64,000 nt of DNA from an uncultured Gammaproteobacteria bacterium (GTDB lineage Bacteria > Pseudomonadota > Gammaproteobacteria > Pseudomonadales > Porticoccaceae), in contig CAJXQR010000003.1 in NCBI GenBank assembly GCA_913058345.1, forward strand, positions 124,001-188,000, in the 5' to 3' direction. Numbering within the stretch: the stretch's first letter is position 1; every line of letters starts with the position of its first letter. Under the pieces are notes generated by a model, which saw nothing but the letters and a program-made list of their open reading frames with translations, ran no database searches and had not been told where the DNA came from. A program made the translations under genes and the position numbers. Shown in pieces: positions 50,574-58,863 of the stretch.

Positions 50574-51614
50574 ATGCTCGATATCGGAATTCTTTTGATG
50601 TTTCGCAACCCGCCCTTTAACCGCATAGACTGGGGGACCATTTATCGTAATGAACTGGATCACGCCGTTGCCGCAGAGACGCTGGGCTACGATCATGTTT
50701 GGCTCAGCGAGCACCACTTTGTTGAAGACGGTTACTCTCCTTCGGTGTTGCCGATAGCAGCGGCTATTGCGGCCCGTACCGAGAAAGTGCGCATTGGTAC
50801 TTATGTGCTCTTACTACCGCTGCACAACCCGGTGCGAGTGGCCGAAGATGCCGCGACGGTTGATGTGATTTCCGGCGGGCGTTTTGATCTGGGCATGGGG
50901 CTGGGTTATCGCCCGGGTGAATTTACCGGCATGGGTATTAGTTCGAAAGAAAGGGGCGCACGGCTGGCCGAGGGCTTGCCGTTGGTGCAGGCGATGATGA
51001 ATGGTGAAAAGGTCAGCCACAATGGCCGTTTTAATCAATATACCGACCTTCAATTGTTTCCGCCGCCAGTGCAGCAACCTTTCCCCATTTGGGTGGGCGC
51101 GCGGGGTGATAAAGCGTTAGATCGAGCCGCACGGCTGGGTTGCCATCTAGCGTCGACGGGTGCGGTAGAGCATCGCTTGAAATATATGGAAGCCCTGCGC
51201 CGTCATGGCCGCGACCCGGATAACTTCAATATCGCCCACCTGCTGATTTGCTATGTTGCGGACAGCGACGAACAGGCCTGGGACGATTGCGCCGAGCCCC
51301 TGCACCATGTGATGAGCGAATATCAGGCCTGGGCCGAGGAGTCAGGCGATGCGACCGGCGATGGCGTTGCCGAAAGTGTTGTGCCTTCACCGGCAGAGCT
51401 GAAAAAGACGCGCTACTGTGAAAGCTTTGGTCGCTCGGCTATTATTGGCAGCCCCGAAACGGTGTTGACCCAGTTATTAGCGGCACATGAAGAATCACCG
51501 GGCACACACCTGACATTAATGATGTCGTTGCCCGGGGCAGAGCCGCGCAGAACGCGCCACAGTATGGAGCTGTTTGCCAGTGAGGTGATGCCTCAGCTTA
51601 AAGCTCAAACTTAA
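50574..51614 (+). CDS. LLM-class flavin/F420-dependent oxidoreductase
   Basis: A 346-residue enzyme with the TIM-barrel fold of bacterial luciferases. Hallmarks are LGYDHVWLSEHHFVEDGYSP, ARTEKVRIGTYVLLLPLHNP and VDVISGGRFDLGMGLGYRPG. The family uses either FMNH2 or F420; an F420 pathway starts 860 bases on in the same direction, which favours F420. AAAGGAG stands nine bases before ATG 50574. It could be the consumer of reduced F420 made by the next gene. Substrate is unknown. Confidence 0.85.
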   Translation: MLDIGILLMFRNPPFNRIDWGTIYRNELDHAVAAETLGYDHVWLSEHHFVEDGYSPSVLPIAAAIAARTEKVRIGTYVLLLPLHNPVRVAEDAATVDVISGGRFDLGMGLGYRPGEFTGMGISSKERGARLAEGLPLVQAMMNGEKVSHNGRFNQYTDLQLFPPPVQQPFPIWVGARGDKALDRAARLGCHLASTGAVEHRLKYMEALRRHGRDPDNFNIAHLLICYVADSDEQAWDDCAEPLHHVMSEYQAWAEESGDATGDGVAESVVPSPAELKKTRYCESFGRSAIIGSPETVLTQLLAAHEESPGTHLTLMMSLPGAEPRRTRHSMELFASEVMPQLKAQT

Positions 51615-51728
51615 GAATGCAGCCTCACTATTATTTATAGGCTTTGTTTCAAGGGGTACACAATATTATTAACACGCTTATGCCCTTGATTAGCGGGGTA
51701 GTTAAAGCATAAAAGAAGGCGGTAAGTA

Positions 51729-52415
51729 GTGAGTAGTGCAGACAATACAGATAAAAAACCGGTAATAGCAATCCTTGGCGGCAGTGGCGATCTCGGCGGT
51801 GGCCTCGCCCTGCGCTGGGCAACGGCGGGTTATGAAGTGATTATCGGTTCACGTACCGAAGAAAAGGCACAAGCGGCGGTTGAAGAATTAAACGCCCGCG
51901 ACTTGTCTATTCCCGCTCGCGCCATGACCAACGAAGCGGCAGCGGCGGCCGGTGAAGTCGTGGCGATGACCGTGCCCTTTGCCAATCATCAATCGACCCT
52001 CGAGGCGATTCGCGAAGCGGTGCAGGGTAAAGTCTTTATTGACGTTACAGTGCCACTCATGCCGCCAAAGGTGGGCACCGTACAAATGCCCGAGGGCGGT
52101 TCTGCCTGCATACAGTCTCAGACATTTCTGGGTGATGAGGTGAAAGTGGTTTCCGCCTATCAAAATGTGGCGGCTGCGCATTTGAACAACCTCGAGCATA
52201 CCCCGGACTGTGACGTACTGGTTTGTGGCAATGATAAAGAGGCCTGTGCACTGGTTGTTTCACTCACCGAAGCGGCGGGTATGAGGGGCTGGCATGCGGG
52301 GCCGATCGCCAACTCTGTCGTTGCCGAAGCCATGACCTCGGTACTGATTACCCTTAATCGACGTTACAAAATCCCCGGTGCCGGCTTTAGCATTACTGGC
52401 AAACCCGGGGTTTAA
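51729..52415 (+). CDS. npdG: NADPH:F420 reductase-like protein
   Basis: A 228-residue dinucleotide-binding protein. The Rossmann loop AILGGSGDLGGGLALRWATA and the NADP-fixing EVIIGSRTEEKA match F420-dependent NADP reductases (Fno/NpdG). KVVSAYQNVAAAHLNNLEHT and NRRYKIPGAGFSITGKPGV also fit this family, which passes hydride between NADPH and F420. The start is GTG 51729, with AGGCGG upstream. Position between an LLM oxidoreductase and cofE makes the F420 role very likely. Confidence 0.88.
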   Translation: MSSADNTDKKPVIAILGGSGDLGGGLALRWATAGYEVIIGSRTEEKAQAAVEELNARDLSIPARAMTNEAAAAAGEVVAMTVPFANHQSTLEAIREAVQGKVFIDVTVPLMPPKVGTVQMPEGGSACIQSQTFLGDEVKVVSAYQNVAAAHLNNLEHTPDCDVLVCGNDKEACALVVSLTEAAGMRGWHAGPIANSVVAEAMTSVLITLNRRYKIPGAGFSITGKPGV

Positions 52416-52480
52416 ATGTTGTCTGAAGATCCTACAGCGCTGCCTGAGGCTGCGCTAATTACTAACGTGTGCCTGTGTCG

Positions 52481-53278
52481 ATGACAGCAGCGCAGTTACA
52501 AGTTTTTGCCCTCGGTGGTTTCCCCCTGGTTGAGCCGGGTGATGACCTGGCCAGGTTGATTGGCGACAGCTTGCTCGCTAACGACTTAACCTTGGTCGAT
52601 GGCGATGTGCTGGTCTTAGCGCAAAAAATAGTTTCTAAAGCTGAAGACCGCTATGTCGATTTAAAACAGGTTGAGCCCACGGCCGAGGCGCAAGCGTTGG
52701 CGACTGCGGTCGATAAAGATCCGCGTATTGTGAGTGTGATTCTCGACGAATCAAACACAGTGGTGCGCCACTGTCCGGGCGTACTGATCGTCGAACATCG
52801 CCTAGGCTATGTGATGGCCAATGCCGGCATCGACGCCTCGAACATTGAACATGCCGGCAGTCAGCGTGGCGACGAACTTGTTGAGCGGGTGTTACTATTA
52901 CCCAAAAACCCCGATCAGTTTGCCGCCGATCTGGCGCAACAATTACAGCAAGTCCATGGTGTAAAAGTCGCTATTATCATTAACGACAGTGTTGGCCGAG
53001 CCTGGCGTAATGGCACTACCGGGCTCGCCCTGGGTGCCGCCGGTTTGCCGGCTCTCGACGATAGGCGCGGCGACAAAGATTTGTACGGACGTACATTGCA
53101 GGTGACCGAAGTTGCCGTTGCTGACCAGTTGGCCAGCGCAGCCGCTCTCTTGCAGGGCGAGGGTGGTGAGGGTAAGCCGGTCGTGCTTATCCGTGGATAT
53201 CAATATGATAGTGCAGCCGACCGCTGTAATGGGGTTAGCGCCTTGCTGCGGGATAAAGAGCGAGACTTATTCCGATAG
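52481..53278 (+). CDS. cofE: Coenzyme F420-0:L-glutamate ligase
   Basis: A 265-residue enzyme that adds glutamates to F420-0 using GTP. The CofE fold is seen in PLVEPGDDLARLIGDSLLAN, VLVLAQKIVSKAEDRYVDLK, DESNTVVRHCPGVLIVEHRL and VKVAIIINDSVGRAWRNGTT then GLALGAAG. It is the stand-alone form; the FMN-binding FbiB domain fused in mycobacteria is absent. ATG 52481 is preferred since family members begin close to it; GTG 52469 is possible. It follows npdG by 65 bases. Confidence 0.93.
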   Translation: MTAAQLQVFALGGFPLVEPGDDLARLIGDSLLANDLTLVDGDVLVLAQKIVSKAEDRYVDLKQVEPTAEAQALATAVDKDPRIVSVILDESNTVVRHCPGVLIVEHRLGYVMANAGIDASNIEHAGSQRGDELVERVLLLPKNPDQFAADLAQQLQQVHGVKVAIIINDSVGRAWRNGTTGLALGAAGLPALDDRRGDKDLYGRTLQVTEVAVADQLASAAALLQGEGGEGKPVVLIRGYQYDSAADRCNGVSALLRDKERDLFR

Positions 53279-53283
53279 AAAAA

Positions 53284-53380
53284 GCTCGGGTAAGAAAAGT
53301 TTCGATAAAGACAGTTGGGATCGTAGGGTTTCGATAGGACAGATTGAGAAGAGAGACCTTTCGGTAAGAGAAACGCCGGT
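53284..53380 (+). repeat. Purine-rich degenerate repeats between cofE and cofD
   Basis: GTTTCGATAAAGACAG (53299-53314) and GTTTCGATAGGACAG (53328-53342) form an imperfect direct repeat 29 bases apart, and TCGGGTAAGAAAAG recurs as TCGGTAAGAGAAAC around them. The 160-base gap is strongly purine-rich. No hairpin or binding motif is known to me; it could be a leader, an RNA processing region or a decayed duplication. Confidence 0.35.
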
Positions 53381-53439
53381 CAAGGAGCTAAGGTTGAAAA
53401 GAATTCTGATGAGGCGAGTTGCGATGAAAAGACGTACAG

Positions 53440-54405
53440 ATGGGTAGTAAACGCAAAGTGCTGGCCCTCTGCGGTGGCGTCGGGGGTGCTAAATTAGCGC
53501 TTGGCCTAAGCCATGTGCTGGGTGACGACGAGCTGTGCATTGTGGTCAATACTGGCGATGACTTTACGCATCTCGGCCTGCGCATCTGCCCCGATATCGA
53601 CACCGTCACCTACACGCTGGCGGGCTGCGTCAACACCGAAACCGGCTGGGGCAGGGCGGAGGAAACCGGCACATTTATGGCCTCGCTCAAAACGCTGGGT
53701 GGAGAAGATTGGTTTTACCTCGGTGATAAAGACCTCGCCATGCACGTCGAACGCACCCGTCGTTTAGCGGCCGGTGAAAATCTTGGCACCGTAACGCAGG
53801 CCTTGAGCCGCAAGCTCGGCGTGTCGGTGCCGCTCATTCCCATGACCGATGACACCGTTGAAACGCAAGTAGAAGTGGAGGGGGATGTAGAGTCGTTAAT
53901 CCTGCCTTTTCAGGACTATTTCGTTCGCCAACGCTGTGAACCCAAGCTGAAAGCCATTCATTTTGTCGGTCAAGAGCATGCTCAGCCCCACCCACAATTC
54001 CTTGCCAACCTACTAGACCCCGATCTTGATCTGATCATTATTTGCCCTTCTAACCCCTTTCTTAGCGTCGACCCGATCCTGGCGCTGCCTGGTATTCGCG
54101 GCATCCTGCAAAAAACGGCAGTGCCGGTAGTGGCGATATCGCCTATTATCGGTGGCGCGGCCGTGAAGGGGCCAACAGCAAAAATAATGGGCGAACTCGG
54201 TTTGAAAATGAACTCAATTACCGTGGCTGATTACTATCAAGATATTGCCAGCGGCTTTATTCTCGATCGCCGTGATGCCGTAGAGATTGAGGCCATTCGT
54301 GAGATTATTCCCCGGGTGGGTGTCGCACAAACCTTGATGCAAACTATAGAAGACAAAATTGAGCTGGCTCGTGAAACCCTGGATTTTGTAGGACTGGATG
54401 TTTAG
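53440..54405 (+). CDS. cofD: 2-phospho-L-lactate transferase (or phosphoenolpyruvate/3-phosphoglycerate type)
   Basis: A 321-residue enzyme that joins the side chain from CofC's product to the deazaflavin Fo. LCGGVGGAKLALGLSHVLGD, NTGDDFTHLGLRICPDIDTV and WGRAEETGTFMASLKTLGGE are the classical CofD segments, with VAISPIIGGAAVKGPTAKIM near the end. Length is standard. It is 161 bases after cofE and 67 before cofC. Which phospho-acid side chain it carries depends on CofC and cannot be read safely. Confidence 0.94.
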   Translation: MGSKRKVLALCGGVGGAKLALGLSHVLGDDELCIVVNTGDDFTHLGLRICPDIDTVTYTLAGCVNTETGWGRAEETGTFMASLKTLGGEDWFYLGDKDLAMHVERTRRLAAGENLGTVTQALSRKLGVSVPLIPMTDDTVETQVEVEGDVESLILPFQDYFVRQRCEPKLKAIHFVGQEHAQPHPQFLANLLDPDLDLIIICPSNPFLSVDPILALPGIRGILQKTAVPVVAISPIIGGAAVKGPTAKIMGELGLKMNSITVADYYQDIASGFILDRRDAVEIEAIREIIPRVGVAQTLMQTIEDKIELARETLDFVGLDV

Positions 54406-54472
54406 TGATAAACACCGTAGCAAAGATAGAATAGAATAAGACGCACTAAGGCGCAGTTGCTCGGAAAATGAT

Positions 54473-55306
54473 ATGCAAGTGGTAGTCCCCCTAAAGAGTT
54501 TCAATGATGCGAAAAAGCGCCTGGCGACTGTGCTGACGGCGCAACAACGCTGTGAGCTCATGAAACAGATGTTCGTGGATGTACTCCGCGCTGTTGTCGC
54601 AACGCCGGAAGTAGAGGGCATTACTGTCGTCAGTAGTGATGCAGACGTCGCTCAGTGGGTCGCTCAGTACGCTCAAGGTATAACAATGCCGTTGCGTGCT
54701 TTCGATCCAGGCTCCTACCTCACAGCTTCTCATCAAACAGTCTCTAATATTGTGAACCGGAGAACTGGCGCGAAGCCCGGTTTTACTGCTGTCAACACAT
54801 TAGCGGAAGCCGGTTTGTGCCATGCCTACCGAGCTGTTGCTGCAGACCTGCTAACTCGGGGTGCTAGCACCATGCTGCTCTTACCTGCCGACATCCCCCT
54901 TGTCTCCAAAACGGATATTCAAGCCTTGCTGGCAGTACACACTCGCCCTGGGGTGAGCCTGGCGGCGGCGGGCTCCGATGGAGGAACCAATGCTCTGTTG
55001 GTCTCTCCGCCGGATATTATTGCACCGGCTTTTGGCAAAAATAGTTGTCTGCGCCATAGCGGCCATGCACGAGAGCAGGGTTTAGAGGCCATAATAGTGA
55101 ACACCGCTGGGTTGAATCTGGATATAGATACACTGGACGATATACAGACCCTGTTGGCCACTGACAAAGAATGTGCCACCCTGCGTTACCTGCGCGATAG
55201 TGGTCTTGCTAACGAATTACACAAAAGTGCAAAGGCCGAGCAGTTACGAGGGACTCCATTTCGACAGAAGGATCCGCAACACCAAACAAACAGGCAGGTT
55301 GGATGA
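54473..55306 (+). CDS. cofC: CofC-type guanylyltransferase (FbiD)
   Basis: A 277-residue nucleotidyltransferase that activates a three-carbon phospho-acid with GTP. The fold is shown by VVVPLKSFNDAKKRLATVLT, GITVVSSDADVAQWV, LLLPADIPLVSKTDIQALLA and the HAREQGLEA loop. The last about 30 residues (HKSAKAEQLRGTPFRQKDPQ onwards) are polar, look disordered and make it longer than the usual 200-240. It overlaps cofGH by four bases (ATGA). The substrate could be 2-phospholactate, phosphoenolpyruvate or 3-phosphoglycerate; all are known in different bacteria. Confidence 0.9.
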   Translation: MQVVVPLKSFNDAKKRLATVLTAQQRCELMKQMFVDVLRAVVATPEVEGITVVSSDADVAQWVAQYAQGITMPLRAFDPGSYLTASHQTVSNIVNRRTGAKPGFTAVNTLAEAGLCHAYRAVAADLLTRGASTMLLLPADIPLVSKTDIQALLAVHTRPGVSLAAAGSDGGTNALLVSPPDIIAPAFGKNSCLRHSGHAREQGLEAIIVNTAGLNLDIDTLDDIQTLLATDKECATLRYLRDSGLANELHKSAKAEQLRGTPFRQKDPQHQTNRQVG

Positions 55307-57681
55307 ACAGTATTGTTAAACCCGGACAGGCGCTCATACCAAGCCGCTCAGCGGCTTTGGCGCTGGCCGATGAAACTGATCTCGCGGCTTTAATGACCCG
55401 CGCCGCTGCCTTGCGCGATGAGGCCCACGGCCCTCGGATCTCCTATTCGCGGAAAATTTTTATTCCGCTCACCCAGTTGTGTCGCAATGTTTGTCACTAT
55501 TGCACCTTTGCGCAAACACCGAAAAAAATTGAGCAGCCCTACATGCTGCCTGAGCAGGTTCTCAAAGTGGCCCGTCAGGGTGCGGCTGCAGGCTGCCACG
55601 AAGCCTTGTTTACCCTCGGTGACAAGCCTGAATTACGTTATGAAACGGCGCGTAAAGCACTCGCCGAGCTGGGCTATGCCTCGACAATGGACTATGTGCT
55701 AGCCATGGCCAGACGGGTGTTTGAAGAAACCGGCCTCTTGCCCCACCTCAATCCGGGAGTGATGAACGAGACCGAACTGCGCGCCAGCCGCGATGTCTCT
55801 GTTTCTCAGGGCATGATGCTGGAAAGTGTCTCCAAACGACTCTGTGAAAAAGGTGGTCCGCACTACGGCTCGCCCGATAAATTACCTGAAGTCCGCCTTG
55901 AAACCTTAGCGCTTGCCGGGCAATTAAACATTCCCTACACCAGTGGTATTTTGATTGGTATCGGTGAAACAAGGCTCGAACGTGTTGAGTCATTGTTAGC
56001 GCTACGCGATTTGCACCAGCGATATGGCCATATTCAGGAAATAATCATTCAGAATTTTTGTGCTAAAAAAGGCACATTAATGGCCGACGTGCCCGATGCG
56101 CCCCTCGACGAATTACTCTGGACTATCGCTGTGGCGCGGATTGTTTTTGGCGGTGCGATGAATCTACAAACACCGCCTAATTTGAATGAGGGTGTACTGG
56201 CGCAACTCATTGACGCTGGCATCAACGACTGGGGTGGGGTGTCGCCCGTCACACCCGACTTCGTTAATCCTGAAAAGCCCTGGCCGGGTCTGGAAAATCT
56301 CGCTCGTTTAACAGCGGCCAGTAATAAATTACTGGTCGAGCGCTTACCCGTTTACCCTGGTTTTGCCCACGACTCTCAGCGTTGGCAGACTCCTGCGATG
56401 GCGAGCGCATTGATTAAACCAATGGACAGCGACGGCTATGCTCGCCGCGAGCGCTGGACGCCAGGTAGTGTGCAAACGCCGCCTGCTCACCTCGAACGGG
56501 AGGGTTGGTCTTTTGCGCCACCGGCGATCACATCATCGTCGACCGCTACCCAGACGACCATTGCCCGCGCTGTGCGGGGTGAACGTCTGGATGAAAAAGC
56601 TATTGTGCAGCTATTTCAGGCCCGAGGTAGTGATTATCAAACCATTTGCGAGGCGGCCGACGGCCTGCGACGCGAAGTGATTGGCGATACAGTCACCTAT
56701 GCGATTAACCGCAATATTAATTACACCAATGTCTGCTACTTGTCCTGTAAGTTTTGCGCCTTTTCGAAGGGTAAAACGACCGAGGCCCTGCGTGGAAAAG
56801 CCTATGTGCTCGATAGCGCCGAGGTGACCCAGCGCGCCGCCGAGGCCTGGCAAAAAGGCGCGACCGAAGTGTGCTTGCAGGGCGGCATTCATCCGAGCTA
56901 TACCGGCGACACCTATTTGGAAATTTGTGGCGATATTCGCAAGGCGCTACCCGATCTGCATATTCATGCCTTCTCTCCACTGGAAGTCAGTCAGGGTGCC
57001 GAGACCCTGGGTTTAAATATTGAAGAGTATTTGTGTCGGCTCAAAGCAGCAGGACTGAATAGCTTGCCGGGCACGGCGGCTGAAATTCTAGACGATGAAG
57101 TGCGGGCTGTTATTTGCCCCGACAAAATCAATACGCAACAGTGGTTGAATGTGATTGAGACGGCCCACAAAGTGGGTATAAAAACCACTTCGACCATCAT
57201 GTTTGGCCATGTCGACCAGCCTGTGCACTGGGCGCGGCACCTGCTGCACCTGCGCGACTTGCAGCAACGGACCGGCGGAATCACCGAGTTTGTCCCTCTG
57301 CCTTTTGTGCCCATGGAAGCGCCGATGTACCGTCGGGGCTTGTCGCGGCAGGGACCGACTATGCGCGAGTCAGTCTTAATGCACGCCGTATCACGGCTGG
57401 TCTTGCACTCGCTGATCGATAATATTCAGGTCTCATGGGTGAAGATGGGCGAGCAGGGCGTAGTGGCCTGTCTCAATGCGGGCGCTAACGATATGGGCGG
57501 TACTTTAATGAACGAGAGTATTTCTCGTGCTGCCGGGGCTGCCCACGGTCAGGAAATGACGGTCGCAACCATGACAGCATTGTTACAGGGTATTGACCGC
57601 CCGGCACGACAGAGAAGCACTTTTTACGGTGAAGTGATAGCGCATCCTGATCAACTGATTCCCCTGCAGTCCCGCTCCTAG
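55303..57681 (+). CDS. fbiC: Fo synthase, fused CofG-CofH (FbiC)
   Basis: A 792-residue enzyme with two radical SAM domains that builds the deazaflavin chromophore Fo from tyrosine and a flavin precursor. The CofG half has its cluster motif CRNVCHYCTFAQTP (Cys60, 64, 67). The CofH half has CYLSCKFCAFSKG (Cys478, 482, 485). Domains meet near residues 390-430. The fused form is known from actinobacteria and some proteobacteria, while archaea have separate genes. It starts inside the end of cofC and is the last F420 gene. The biotin operon follows after 141 bases. Confidence 0.95.
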   Translation: MNSIVKPGQALIPSRSAALALADETDLAALMTRAAALRDEAHGPRISYSRKIFIPLTQLCRNVCHYCTFAQTPKKIEQPYMLPEQVLKVARQGAAAGCHEALFTLGDKPELRYETARKALAELGYASTMDYVLAMARRVFEETGLLPHLNPGVMNETELRASRDVSVSQGMMLESVSKRLCEKGGPHYGSPDKLPEVRLETLALAGQLNIPYTSGILIGIGETRLERVESLLALRDLHQRYGHIQEIIIQNFCAKKGTLMADVPDAPLDELLWTIAVARIVFGGAMNLQTPPNLNEGVLAQLIDAGINDWGGVSPVTPDFVNPEKPWPGLENLARLTAASNKLLVERLPVYPGFAHDSQRWQTPAMASALIKPMDSDGYARRERWTPGSVQTPPAHLEREGWSFAPPAITSSSTATQTTIARAVRGERLDEKAIVQLFQARGSDYQTICEAADGLRREVIGDTVTYAINRNINYTNVCYLSCKFCAFSKGKTTEALRGKAYVLDSAEVTQRAAEAWQKGATEVCLQGGIHPSYTGDTYLEICGDIRKALPDLHIHAFSPLEVSQGAETLGLNIEEYLCRLKAAGLNSLPGTAAEILDDEVRAVICPDKINTQQWLNVIETAHKVGIKTTSTIMFGHVDQPVHWARHLLHLRDLQQRTGGITEFVPLPFVPMEAPMYRRGLSRQGPTMRESVLMHAVSRLVLHSLIDNIQVSWVKMGEQGVVACLNAGANDMGGTLMNESISRAAGAAHGQEMTVATMTALLQGIDRPARQRSTFYGEVIAHPDQLIPLQSRS

Positions 57682-57710: not shown

Positions 57711-57743
57711 TTGTTAACCCCTAAGCCTTAATTGGGTTGACAG
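57711..57743. promoter_or_regulatory. BirA operator-like palindrome before bioB
   Basis: TTGTTAACC (57711-57719), 15 bases, then GGTTGACAG (57735-57743). This resembles the BirA site TTGTAAACC-N15/16-GGTTTACAA with one mismatch in the left and two in the right half. It lies about 80 bases before bioB and its right half overlaps a -35 element, as expected for a repressor site. Confidence 0.65.
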
Positions 57744-57764
57744 CAGGTTTGCGGGCTTTATGAT
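57737..57764 (+). promoter_or_regulatory. Sigma70-type promoter of the biotin operon
   Basis: TTGACA (57737-57742) and TATGAT (57759-57764) are separated by 16 bases; the first is a perfect -35 and the second differs from the -10 consensus at one base. It overlaps the BirA-like operator, so biotin-loaded BirA would block it. Confidence 0.65.
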
Positions 57765-57822: not shown

Positions 57823-58863
57823 ATGACCGTTGACGTGCGTCACGATTGGAGTGAAGAGGAAGTACTAGGCTTGTTTAATCAGCCTTTTAGCGATTTGATG
57901 TTTACAGCGCAAACCGTACATCGCCAGCACTTCGACCCCAATCAGGTGCAGGTCAGTACACTTCTGTCGATCAAAACCGGCACTTGCCCCGAAGACTGTA
58001 AATACTGCCCGCAAAGTGGGCACTACAACACCGGACTTGAAAAAGAAAAGCTGCTGGAGATTGAACGGGTTATTGCTGAGGCCAAAGTGGCCAAAGCCAA
58101 TGGCACCAGCCGTTTTTGTATGGGCGCTGCCTGGCGTTCGCCGAGTAAAAAAGACATGCCCTATGTGCTCGACATGGTGAAAGAGGTGAAGGCACTTGGC
58201 CTTGAGACCTGCATGACCCTGGGCATGTTGAGTGACGAGCAGGCCAGTGATTTAGCTGAGGCCGGACTCGACTACTACAATCACAATCTCGATACTTCGC
58301 CCGAACACTACGGCGAAATTATTACCACGCGCACTTATCAAGACAGGCTCGATACCCTGGCCAATGTACGCTCTGCGGGTATGAAAGTGTGCTGTGGCGG
58401 TATTGTTGGCATGGGCGAGAAATTAAAAGATCGCGCTGGCCTGTTGGTACAGTTGGCCAATCTCGAGGAGCAGCCCGAATCTGTACCCATCAATATGTTG
58501 GTTAAAGTGGAAGGCACACCGCTCGAAAACGAGGCCGACCTCGAACCTTTCGACTTTTTACGCACCATCGCTGTGGCACGTATTTTAATGCCGAAATCTC
58601 ATGTGCGGCTCTCTGCCGGACGTGAAGAAATGAATGAACAAATGCAGGCCCTGGCTTTCCTCGCGGGTGCTAATTCAATTTTTTACGGTGAAAAACTCCT
58701 CACCACACCCAACCCCTCTGCCAATAAAGATATGCAGCTGTTTGACAAGTTGGGGATACAGCCTGAACAGCACTGCGTTGCTCACGAGCAAGAGGCGGCA
58801 GTGGCTGAGCAAATTACCGAGGCAGCAATGGACAAGCATTTTTATAATGCCGCCCGTGCATAG
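57823..58863 (+). CDS. bioB: Biotin synthase
   Basis: A 346-residue radical SAM enzyme that inserts sulfur into dethiobiotin. The cluster motif CPEDCKYC (Cys55, 59, 62) is followed by [20 protein letters not shown], and [40 protein letters not shown] and the [14 protein letters not shown] segment with the Arg ligand of the second cluster are in place. AAAGGTG stands six bases before ATG 57823. Length is standard. First gene of bioB-F-D. Confidence 0.97.

What the first reader, a model, noticed from the sequence alone, without database searches (positions are those of the whole stretch)
50574..57681. Complete coenzyme F420 biosynthesis and use cluster in a gammaproteobacterium
Sequence shows LLM oxidoreductase, NpdG-like reductase, cofE, cofD, cofC and fused cofGH in one direction over 7.1 kb. 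All steps from Fo to polyglutamylated F420, its reduction and a probable consumer are together. F420 is classically archaeal and actinobacterial; it is known in some proteobacteria, but gammaproteobacterial cases are few. Stand-alone CofE with fused CofGH is a mix of archaeal-like and actinobacterial-like layouts, suggesting transfer and reassembly. The LLM enzyme's substrate could define a new F420-dependent reaction.
Basis: partly seen in the sequence, partly recalled or inferred. Interest (0 to 1): 0.85.

Follow-up and report, generated by a model that had tools for sequence, protein, structure and literature searches.

The report
Ordinary marine-bacterium coenzyme F420 operon
This is a genuine, intact set of genes for making and recharging the redox cofactor F420 in a gammaproteobacterium, but the same gene set, in the same order, is common in its relatives, so the find is a new example of something known rather than an oddity.

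Summary
In detail: six genes on one strand at 50574-57681 encode a luciferase-like (LLM) enzyme, NADPH:F420 reductase, CofE, CofD, CofC and fused CofGH, in a Porticoccaceae-type gammaproteobacterium. Parts of the interpretation fail or weaken. (1) Not rare: CofGH matches in 103 of 390 genomes drawn from the order. (2) Not a mosaic: NpdG-CofE-CofD-CofC-CofGH on one strand is the commonest layout, 38 of 80 named loci, and all 54 CofE ORFs with a stop there are stand-alone. Trees of CofGH and of NpdG+CofE+CofD agree on the main groups, so the block travels as a unit; the family holds unrelated copies (p-AU 8.5e-9). (3) The operon LLM just misses the F420-LLM cut-off and leans to FMN luciferases in fold and motif; cofactor undecided. 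Better F420 consumers lie elsewhere in the genome: 8 of its 23 LLMs pass F420-LLM cut-offs, plus 3 FDOR-A proteins. No dehydro-F420 reductase was recognised; CofC is not 3-PG type. F420 was not measured.

The parts
50574..51614 (+). Luciferase-like (LLM, PF00296) oxidoreductase, first gene of the operon; cofactor FMN or F420 undecided
   Evidence: PF00296 217.3 bits; TIGR03619 161.8, just under cut-off 166.9; AlphaFold pLDDT 89.7; best folds are FMN monooxygenases/luciferases (Z up to 38.4), then F420-dependent Mer (31.1-32.5) and Fgd (29.6-31.1)
51729..52415 (+). NpdG/Fno, NADPH:F420 oxidoreductase (GTG start)
   Evidence: TIGR01915 194.1 over 149.8; PDB 5n2i E 7.4e-41
52469..53278 (+). CofE, F420-0:gamma-glutamyl ligase, stand-alone, 269 aa (GTG start)
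   Evidence: TIGR01916 266.3 over 180.65; PDB 7uld E 1.7e-46
53440..54405 (+). CofD, transfers the activated C3 acid to Fo
   Evidence: TIGR01819 298.0 over 257.45; PDB 3c3d E 3.5e-55, 6uvx E 2.2e-53
54473..55306 (+). CofC guanylyltransferase, 2-PL/PEP class by its diagnostic residue (G188); carries an extra variable stretch before L115, also seen in g1 and g5 relatives
   Evidence: TIGR03552 131.6 over 105; residues and alignment
55303..57681 (+). CofGH, fused Fo synthase (start overlaps the end of cofC)
   Evidence: NF006687 1131.7 over 1018; CofG and CofH models both over cut-off; motifs conserved
57737..57764 (+). Promoter-like site between cofGH and bioB (11 of 12); consensus match only, in a scan whose total (9) was near the shuffle mean (8.3)
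57823..58863 (+). bioB (neighbour, not part): downstream of cofGH in the five g1 clusters seen, directly in three, with 1.3 and 2.7 kb between in two
   Evidence: TIGR00433 429.3; synteny

Best explanation
A functional F420 operon of the common proteobacterial type. CofGH makes Fo from tyrosine and a flavin precursor; CofC and CofD attach a C3 acid (2-phospho-L-lactate or PEP, not 3-phosphoglycerate); CofE adds glutamates; NpdG reduces F420 with NADPH. F420H2 then feeds reductases elsewhere in the genome, chiefly F420-class LLMs and FDOR-A proteins, perhaps in breakdown of lipid-like or other hydrophobic compounds (inferred from neighbours: CaiB-type CoA-transferase, enoyl-CoA hydratase, and FadL/TodX genes in G010). 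The block was acquired as a unit, and the family received F420 clusters more than once. The operon's own LLM is an accessory gene of this clade with undecided cofactor (my estimate: F420 about 45%, FMN about 55%). Shown here: gene identity, catalytic residues, layout, distribution, agreement of trees, co-occurrence with FDOR-A. Inferred: F420 production, precursor, direction of transfer, substrates.
For: Curated cut-offs passed by five enzymes. CofC metal sites present in 78 of 78 aligned sequences, with no Ser/Thr at the 3-PG position (meaning of the residue from PMC8764529, passages and Discussion seen). Same five-gene order in 38 of 80 named loci, 3 of which are this family's own genomes, and on a Paraburkholderia plasmid. 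CofGH and NpdG+CofE+CofD trees place g1/g5/g7, g14 and g10 alike. FDOR-A co-occurs with CofGH: 66 of 74 FDOR-A genomes of the order are CofGH genomes, about 20 expected; in the family 15 both, 6 CofGH only, 5 FDOR-A only, 86 neither, two cut CofGH counted as present. The genome has 23 LLMs. First-look LLM candidates per genome in the family: 16-48 in g1, g3, g4, g5, g7, g10; 0-6 in the other genomes listed. Neighbours.
Against: No measurement of F420. No recognised source of 2-PL and no dehydro-F420 reductase. Some LLM-rich genomes show no CofGH: G007, G008, G062, G089, G090 (these also have FDOR-A) and G011, perhaps draft gaps, perhaps loss. The six g14 cof genomes have no FDOR-A and few LLMs. 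37 of 103 CofGH genomes of the order are not among the FDOR-A genomes. Co-occurrence counts are not corrected for shared ancestry.
Confidence: 0.88

Rival explanations
1. One reading: a rare gammaproteobacterial cluster reassembled from archaeal-like and actinobacterial-like pieces, whose LLM is the dedicated F420 consumer.
For: The family's clusters are of separate origins; the LLM is linked to cof in 8 of 10 testable clusters of genera g1/g5/g7.
Against: Layout is the commonest among named loci; the two gene sets place the main groups alike; 103 of 390 genomes of the order carry CofGH; the LLM has close relatives (E<=1e-80) in none of 380 other order genomes and at 50% or more identity in none of 77 named loci.
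Confidence: 0.05
2. The cluster makes only Fo or an unsaturated dehydro-F420, because no reductase for the PEP route is present.
For: No FbiB-C (TIGR03553) match at E<=1e-3 in the genome, and none over the curated cut-off in 112 family genomes; the best match to a Rhodococcus FbiB C-terminal domain has E 0.02; a linked homologue in only 2 of 77 named loci, within the flanks held.
Against: CofC/CofD may use 2-PL, which needs no reductase (PMC8764529); an unlinked nitroreductase (six PF00881 matches) could serve, and 78 of 112 family genomes have weak TIGR03553 matches below the cut-off; NpdG and many putative F420 enzymes are kept.
Confidence: 0.15
3. The operon LLM is an FMN-dependent monooxygenase that merely shares the operon.
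For: Closest PDB sequences are alkanal monooxygenase alpha chains; best folds are FMN enzymes; it carries EHHF, which none of the 8 F420-labelled own LLMs has.
Against: Its place as first gene of the cof operon is kept in g1, g5 and one g7 cluster; its best NCBIfam model is an F420 one; several FMN enzymes (SsuD, RutA, SfnG) rank below F420-dependent Mer and Fgd in the fold comparison; the own-LLM tree does not settle its side (74/51).
Confidence: 0.5

Closest known systems
F420 clusters of other Pseudomonadota and Acidobacteriota (npdG-cofE-cofD-cofC-cofGH), e.g. Seongchinamella, Zhongshania, Litorivivens, Holophagales, Paraburkholderia PGU19 plasmid
   Same: Same five genes, order and strand; stand-alone CofE; fused CofGH
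   Different: The window has an extra LLM upstream and biotin genes downstream; CofC has an extra variable stretch
Mycobacterial Fbi pathway (FbiA, FbiB, FbiC, FbiD)
   Same: Fused Fo synthase; homologous CofC/CofD/CofE steps
   Different: CofE is not fused to a nitroreductase domain, and no such domain was recognised in the genome
3PG-F420 pathway of Mycetohabitans (PMC8764529)
   Same: Homologous CofC, CofD, CofE in a proteobacterium
   Different: CofC has Gly, not Ser, at the diagnostic S162 position
Bacterial luciferase/alkanal monooxygenase-like LLMs (PDB 8k74, 8cbb, 2i7g, 7bip)
   Same: Fold; HHF in the 8k74 and 8cbb alignments
   Different: 23-28% identity only; linked to F420 genes

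Membership tests
F420 biosynthesis operon | Fo synthase with both radical-SAM halves | tested here: met
   NF006687, TIGR03550 and TIGR03551 over cut-off; Cys motifs
F420 biosynthesis operon | CofC, CofD, CofE equivalogs with key residues | tested here: met
   All over curated cut-offs; CofC residues; alignments to solved CofD and CofE, where single catalytic residues were not checked one by one
F420 biosynthesis operon | F420 actually produced | not testable with these tools
   Needs LC-MS or fluorescence
PEP route with FbiB-C/FbiE dehydro-F420 reductase | Recognisable FbiB-C/FbiE homologue in the genome | tested here: not met
   No TIGR03553 match at E<=1e-3; Rhodococcus domain best E 0.02; genome 95.2% complete
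3PG-F420 pathway | Ser/Thr at Mrhiz CofC S162 | tested here: not met
   Gly188; of 78 aligned CofC 73 have Gly, 4 Asp, 1 Asn
NADPH-dependent F420 reductase (NpdG/Fno) | Over the TIGR01915 cut-off | tested here: met
   194.1 over 149.8
F420-dependent LLM (TIGR03619 and similar), for the operon LLM | Score over a curated F420-LLM cut-off | tested here: not met
   161.8 against 166.9
FMN luciferase-type monooxygenase, for the operon LLM | Closest in fold and sequence; FMN bound | tested here: inconclusive
   Top fold ranks are FMN enzymes; cofactor not testable; tree unresolved

The most novel reading that the evidence does not exclude
The operon LLM, an FMN-enzyme-like protein found next to cof in g1, g5 and one g7 cluster and beside cof in none of 77 other named loci (at 50% identity or more), is an unrelated stand-in for the missing dehydro-F420-0 reductase (the FbiB-C/FbiE step): a new last step of F420 synthesis. 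The evidence does not exclude it, but clusters without this LLM and without a linked FbiE are common, so most relatives must solve the step in another way.
Probability: 0.05. Interest if true: 0.65.

Novelty: new member of a known kind. Interest (0 to 1): 0.3.

Why it matters
The single cluster is ordinary. The setting is more useful: about a quarter of the genomes drawn from this order match CofGH (103 of 390), while the F420 review PMC8498797 has no occurrence of 'gammaproteobacteri' in its main text (the contents of its Table 4 of producers are not in the held text), and ten searches of the held open library showed no paper devoted to it in the rows listed. In this family the F420-positive genera other than g14 combine the cluster with 16-48 LLM candidates per genome, so F420 chemistry may be routine in their catabolism. 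Of 77 named relatives, 75 lack a linked dehydro-F420 reductase within the flanks held, which makes the open question of the bacterial precursor (2-PL or PEP) directly testable in named strains such as Zhongshania antarctica.

Tried and rejected
Mosaic or reassembly: rejected by layout counts and agreement of trees. 3PG-F420: rejected by the diagnostic residue. APH-family kinase (PF01636) between two LLMs on contig C7 as the missing 2-PL kinase: it lies beside cof in G006 but in only 1 of the 77 other named loci (L082), so not pursued. Linked nitroreductase as reductase: L087 and L109 of 77 named loci, plus a 61-residue piece in L081, which is the family's own G010; in G065 one weak match lies near the cluster. 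Co-occurrence of the operon LLM with CofGH across the order: uninformative, since only the own genome matched at E<=1e-80 in 381 genomes. A tree of the own LLMs did not decide the cofactor. Phylum sample: 7 of 398 genomes match at E<=1e-60, 2 of them over the cut-off, and three of the seven are partial matches to the CofH half that may be other enzymes, so F420 is far from universal in the phylum.

Limits and dropped rows: five short or split CofGH (L055, L058, L181, L185, L186) and three duplicates of family genomes (L081, L104, L146) were left out. One search used 47 of 101 rows, chosen by me, under LG+G4 without the mixture model, and its test was run after the quick tree had been seen, though the group is the taxonomic family. 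The tree is FastTree only, 59 rows; g3 and g4 did not hold all three genes, and deeper branches of both trees are unresolved or differ. The 77 named loci are the 80 less those three. In one search scoring was mostly cut at 18 matches, so I quote first-look candidates. One search drew 366 genomes and one search drew 390; the expected overlap assumes one set. and samples hold few genomes of the window's own family.

Papers: PMC8498797 (passages; sections 9, 23, 27), PMC8764529 (outline, passages, Discussion), PMC6450877 (passages), PMC6279831 (passages), PMC4494151 (passages); all others seen as search listings only. Ney et al. 2017 and Braga et al. 2019/2020 were known only through the review. 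That EHHF is a luciferase-family motif, and that the order is Pseudomonadales in GTDB, are recalled (several record titles do say Pseudomonadales); the presence of EHHF is.
Full report
WHAT IS THERE. Six uninterrupted ORFs on the + strand lie at the stated coordinates: LLM 50574-51614, NpdG 51729-52415, CofE 52469-53278, CofD 53440-54405, CofC 54473-55306 and CofGH 55303-57681. Five pass curated NCBIfam cut-offs for their function. bioB follows at 57823, then ORFs that I name bioF and bioD from their sequences without a model. A promoter-like site (11 of 12) stands between cofGH and bioB, so the biotin genes may be separately expressed; the scan as a whole found about as many sites as shuffles do.

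THE ORGANISM. The window is 64 kb of a 3.53 Mb genome in 22 contigs, 95.2% complete. Its family (112 genomes, 14 genera) includes G010, whose cof contig has the same length as a record titled Porticoccaceae bacterium OFTM61, so the host is a Porticoccaceae-type gammaproteobacterium.

HOW COMMON. In the family 19 of 112 genomes have CofGH over the cut-off, and two more (G006, G064) have pieces cut by contig ends; they fall in genera g1, g3, g4, g5, g7, g10 and g14, and none of the others shows it (the many weak matches there are to the BioB-like part of the model). In the order 103 of 390 genomes and 45 of 143 genera match at E<=1e-60, 84 over the cut-off. In a phylum sample 7 of 398 match, 2 over the cut-off. 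Gammaproteobacterial F420 genes are therefore patchy but far from few.

LAYOUT. Of 80 named loci, the nearest relatives found in public genomes, 38 hold exactly NpdG, CofE, CofD, CofC, CofGH on one strand, three of them this family's own genomes; 20 show only CofGH in the stretch held; 22 vary. All 54 CofE ORFs with a stop in the stretch are 252-344 aa and stand-alone, against 451 aa for a fused FbiB on a Rhodococcus plasmid. A Paraburkholderia plasmid carries the same order, and a conjugative Aromatoleum plasmid carries the same genes, cofGH first, among insertion sequences.

HISTORY. In the CofGH tree the window groups with g1, g5 and g7 (100/99), outside the main gammaproteobacterial group; g14 joins Spongiibacteraceae and Litorivivens (98/96); g10 lies near the Paraburkholderia plasmid (91/83); g3 and g4 are elsewhere with one other gammaproteobacterium (99/92). 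Holding the family as one clade costs 187 log-likelihood units (p-AU 8.5e-9). A quick tree from NpdG, CofE and CofD repeats the placing of g1/g5/g7 and g14, and roughly that of g10 (g3 and g4 did not hold all three genes in range). So the genes travel together and reached this family more than once. Donors, direction and deeper branches are not resolved.

THE ISLAND. Ten clusters of g1/g5/g7 reach the gene upstream of npdG; the operon LLM orthologue is there in 8 (window, L047, L049, L050, L053, L054, L055, L058) and not in L056 and L057. In g5 (L054, L055) and g7 (L056-L058) a second LLM of the TIGR03559 type lies near the operon, facing away (in L054 two FadL/TodX-type genes stand between), and in G006 two more LLMs and an APH-type kinase follow. 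In the window's genome this LLM set sits on another contig, C7. It seems that a larger F420 island was split in genus g1, with the cof half next to bioB in the five g1 clusters seen, directly in three. An orthologue of the C7 LLM (at least 50% identity over 70% of its length) is within the held flanks of cof in 16 of 77 other named loci, from Chloroflexota, Acidobacteriota, Alpha- and Gammaproteobacteria; the operon LLM is in none. The C7 LLM (368.1 over 335 for TIGR03559) is thus the better candidate for a widespread F420 partner.

CONSUMERS. The genome has 23 LLMs and 3 FDOR-A proteins. All 23 LLMs were scanned; eight pass a cut-off of a model named as F420-dependent, one of them barely (214.2 over 213.65). 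Such model names are predictions. FDOR-A follows CofGH: 66 of 74 FDOR-A genomes of the order are CofGH genomes (about 20 expected); of the eight others five are under 90% complete; 37 of the 103 CofGH genomes are not among the 74, and some of these may not have been drawn. In the family: 15 both, 6 CofGH only (all g14), 5 FDOR-A only, 86 neither. Shared ancestry inflates these figures.

THE OPERON LLM. Best NCBIfam model TIGR03619, 161.8 against 166.9. Closest solved sequences are alkanal monooxygenase alpha chains. The AlphaFold model (pLDDT 89.7) is nearest to FMN monooxygenases and luciferase alpha chains (Z 33-38), then F420-dependent Mer (31.1-32.5) and Fgd (29.6-31.1); other FMN enzymes such as SsuD, RutA and SfnG rank below these. 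The differences are modest. It carries EHHF, as do 7 other own LLMs, none of them F420-labelled. The tree leaves it between the two groups (74/51). I put F420 at about 45% and FMN at about 55%.

MISSING STEP. CofC has Gly at the position where 3-PG enzymes have Ser (PMC8764529), so 2-PL or PEP is expected. The PEP route needs a dehydro-F420 reductase. No FbiB-C model match was found in the genome, a direct search gave E 0.02, and only 2 of 77 named loci have one nearby. Either 2-PL is used, its kinase being unknown, or an unrecognised enzyme, perhaps one of the ordinary nitroreductases, reduces dehydro-F420. This is the most interesting open point, and it is shared by most of the clusters compared, not by this one alone.

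VERDICT. A real F420 operon, new member of a known kind. Interest 0.3: the cluster is ordinary, but its abundance in the order and the absent reductase are worth a bench test.

Noticed in passing
L047:4813-5002 (G088), between cofGH and bioB: Two short pieces similar to CofGH (76 and 85% identity) lie beside the intact gene, a likely relic of a tandem duplication; G091 (L048) has a 2.7 kb gap at the same place.
   Followed up: no
L159:7392-11910 (G000 contig C7): Three LLM genes and an APH-family phosphotransferase (PF01636) form a block that lies beside the cof operon in G006 but is separate in the window's genome.
   Followed up: partly
L163:7694-9222 (G000 contig C3): An LLM of the TIGR03620 F420 type lies beside an FDOR-A (F420H2_quin_red) gene, a second likely F420-using locus.
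   Followed up: no
L087 and L109: Two Alcaligenaceae cof clusters carry a nearby FbiB-C/FbiE-like nitroreductase (29-30% identity), unlike the other 75 named loci within the flanks held.
   Followed up: partly
L069, L084, L094, L102, L138 (CofC): These CofC have Asp (four) or Asn (one), not Gly, at the 3-PG diagnostic position; substrate preference unknown.
   Followed up: no
window:49246-49554: A 102-aa ORF looks by eye like a shortened membrane-transporter remnant between the CaiB-type gene and the SMP-30 gene; no Pfam match.
   Followed up: partly
window:61122-62243: CrtC/Lipocalin_9-type protein (PF07143, PF17186) downstream of the biotin genes.
   Followed up: no
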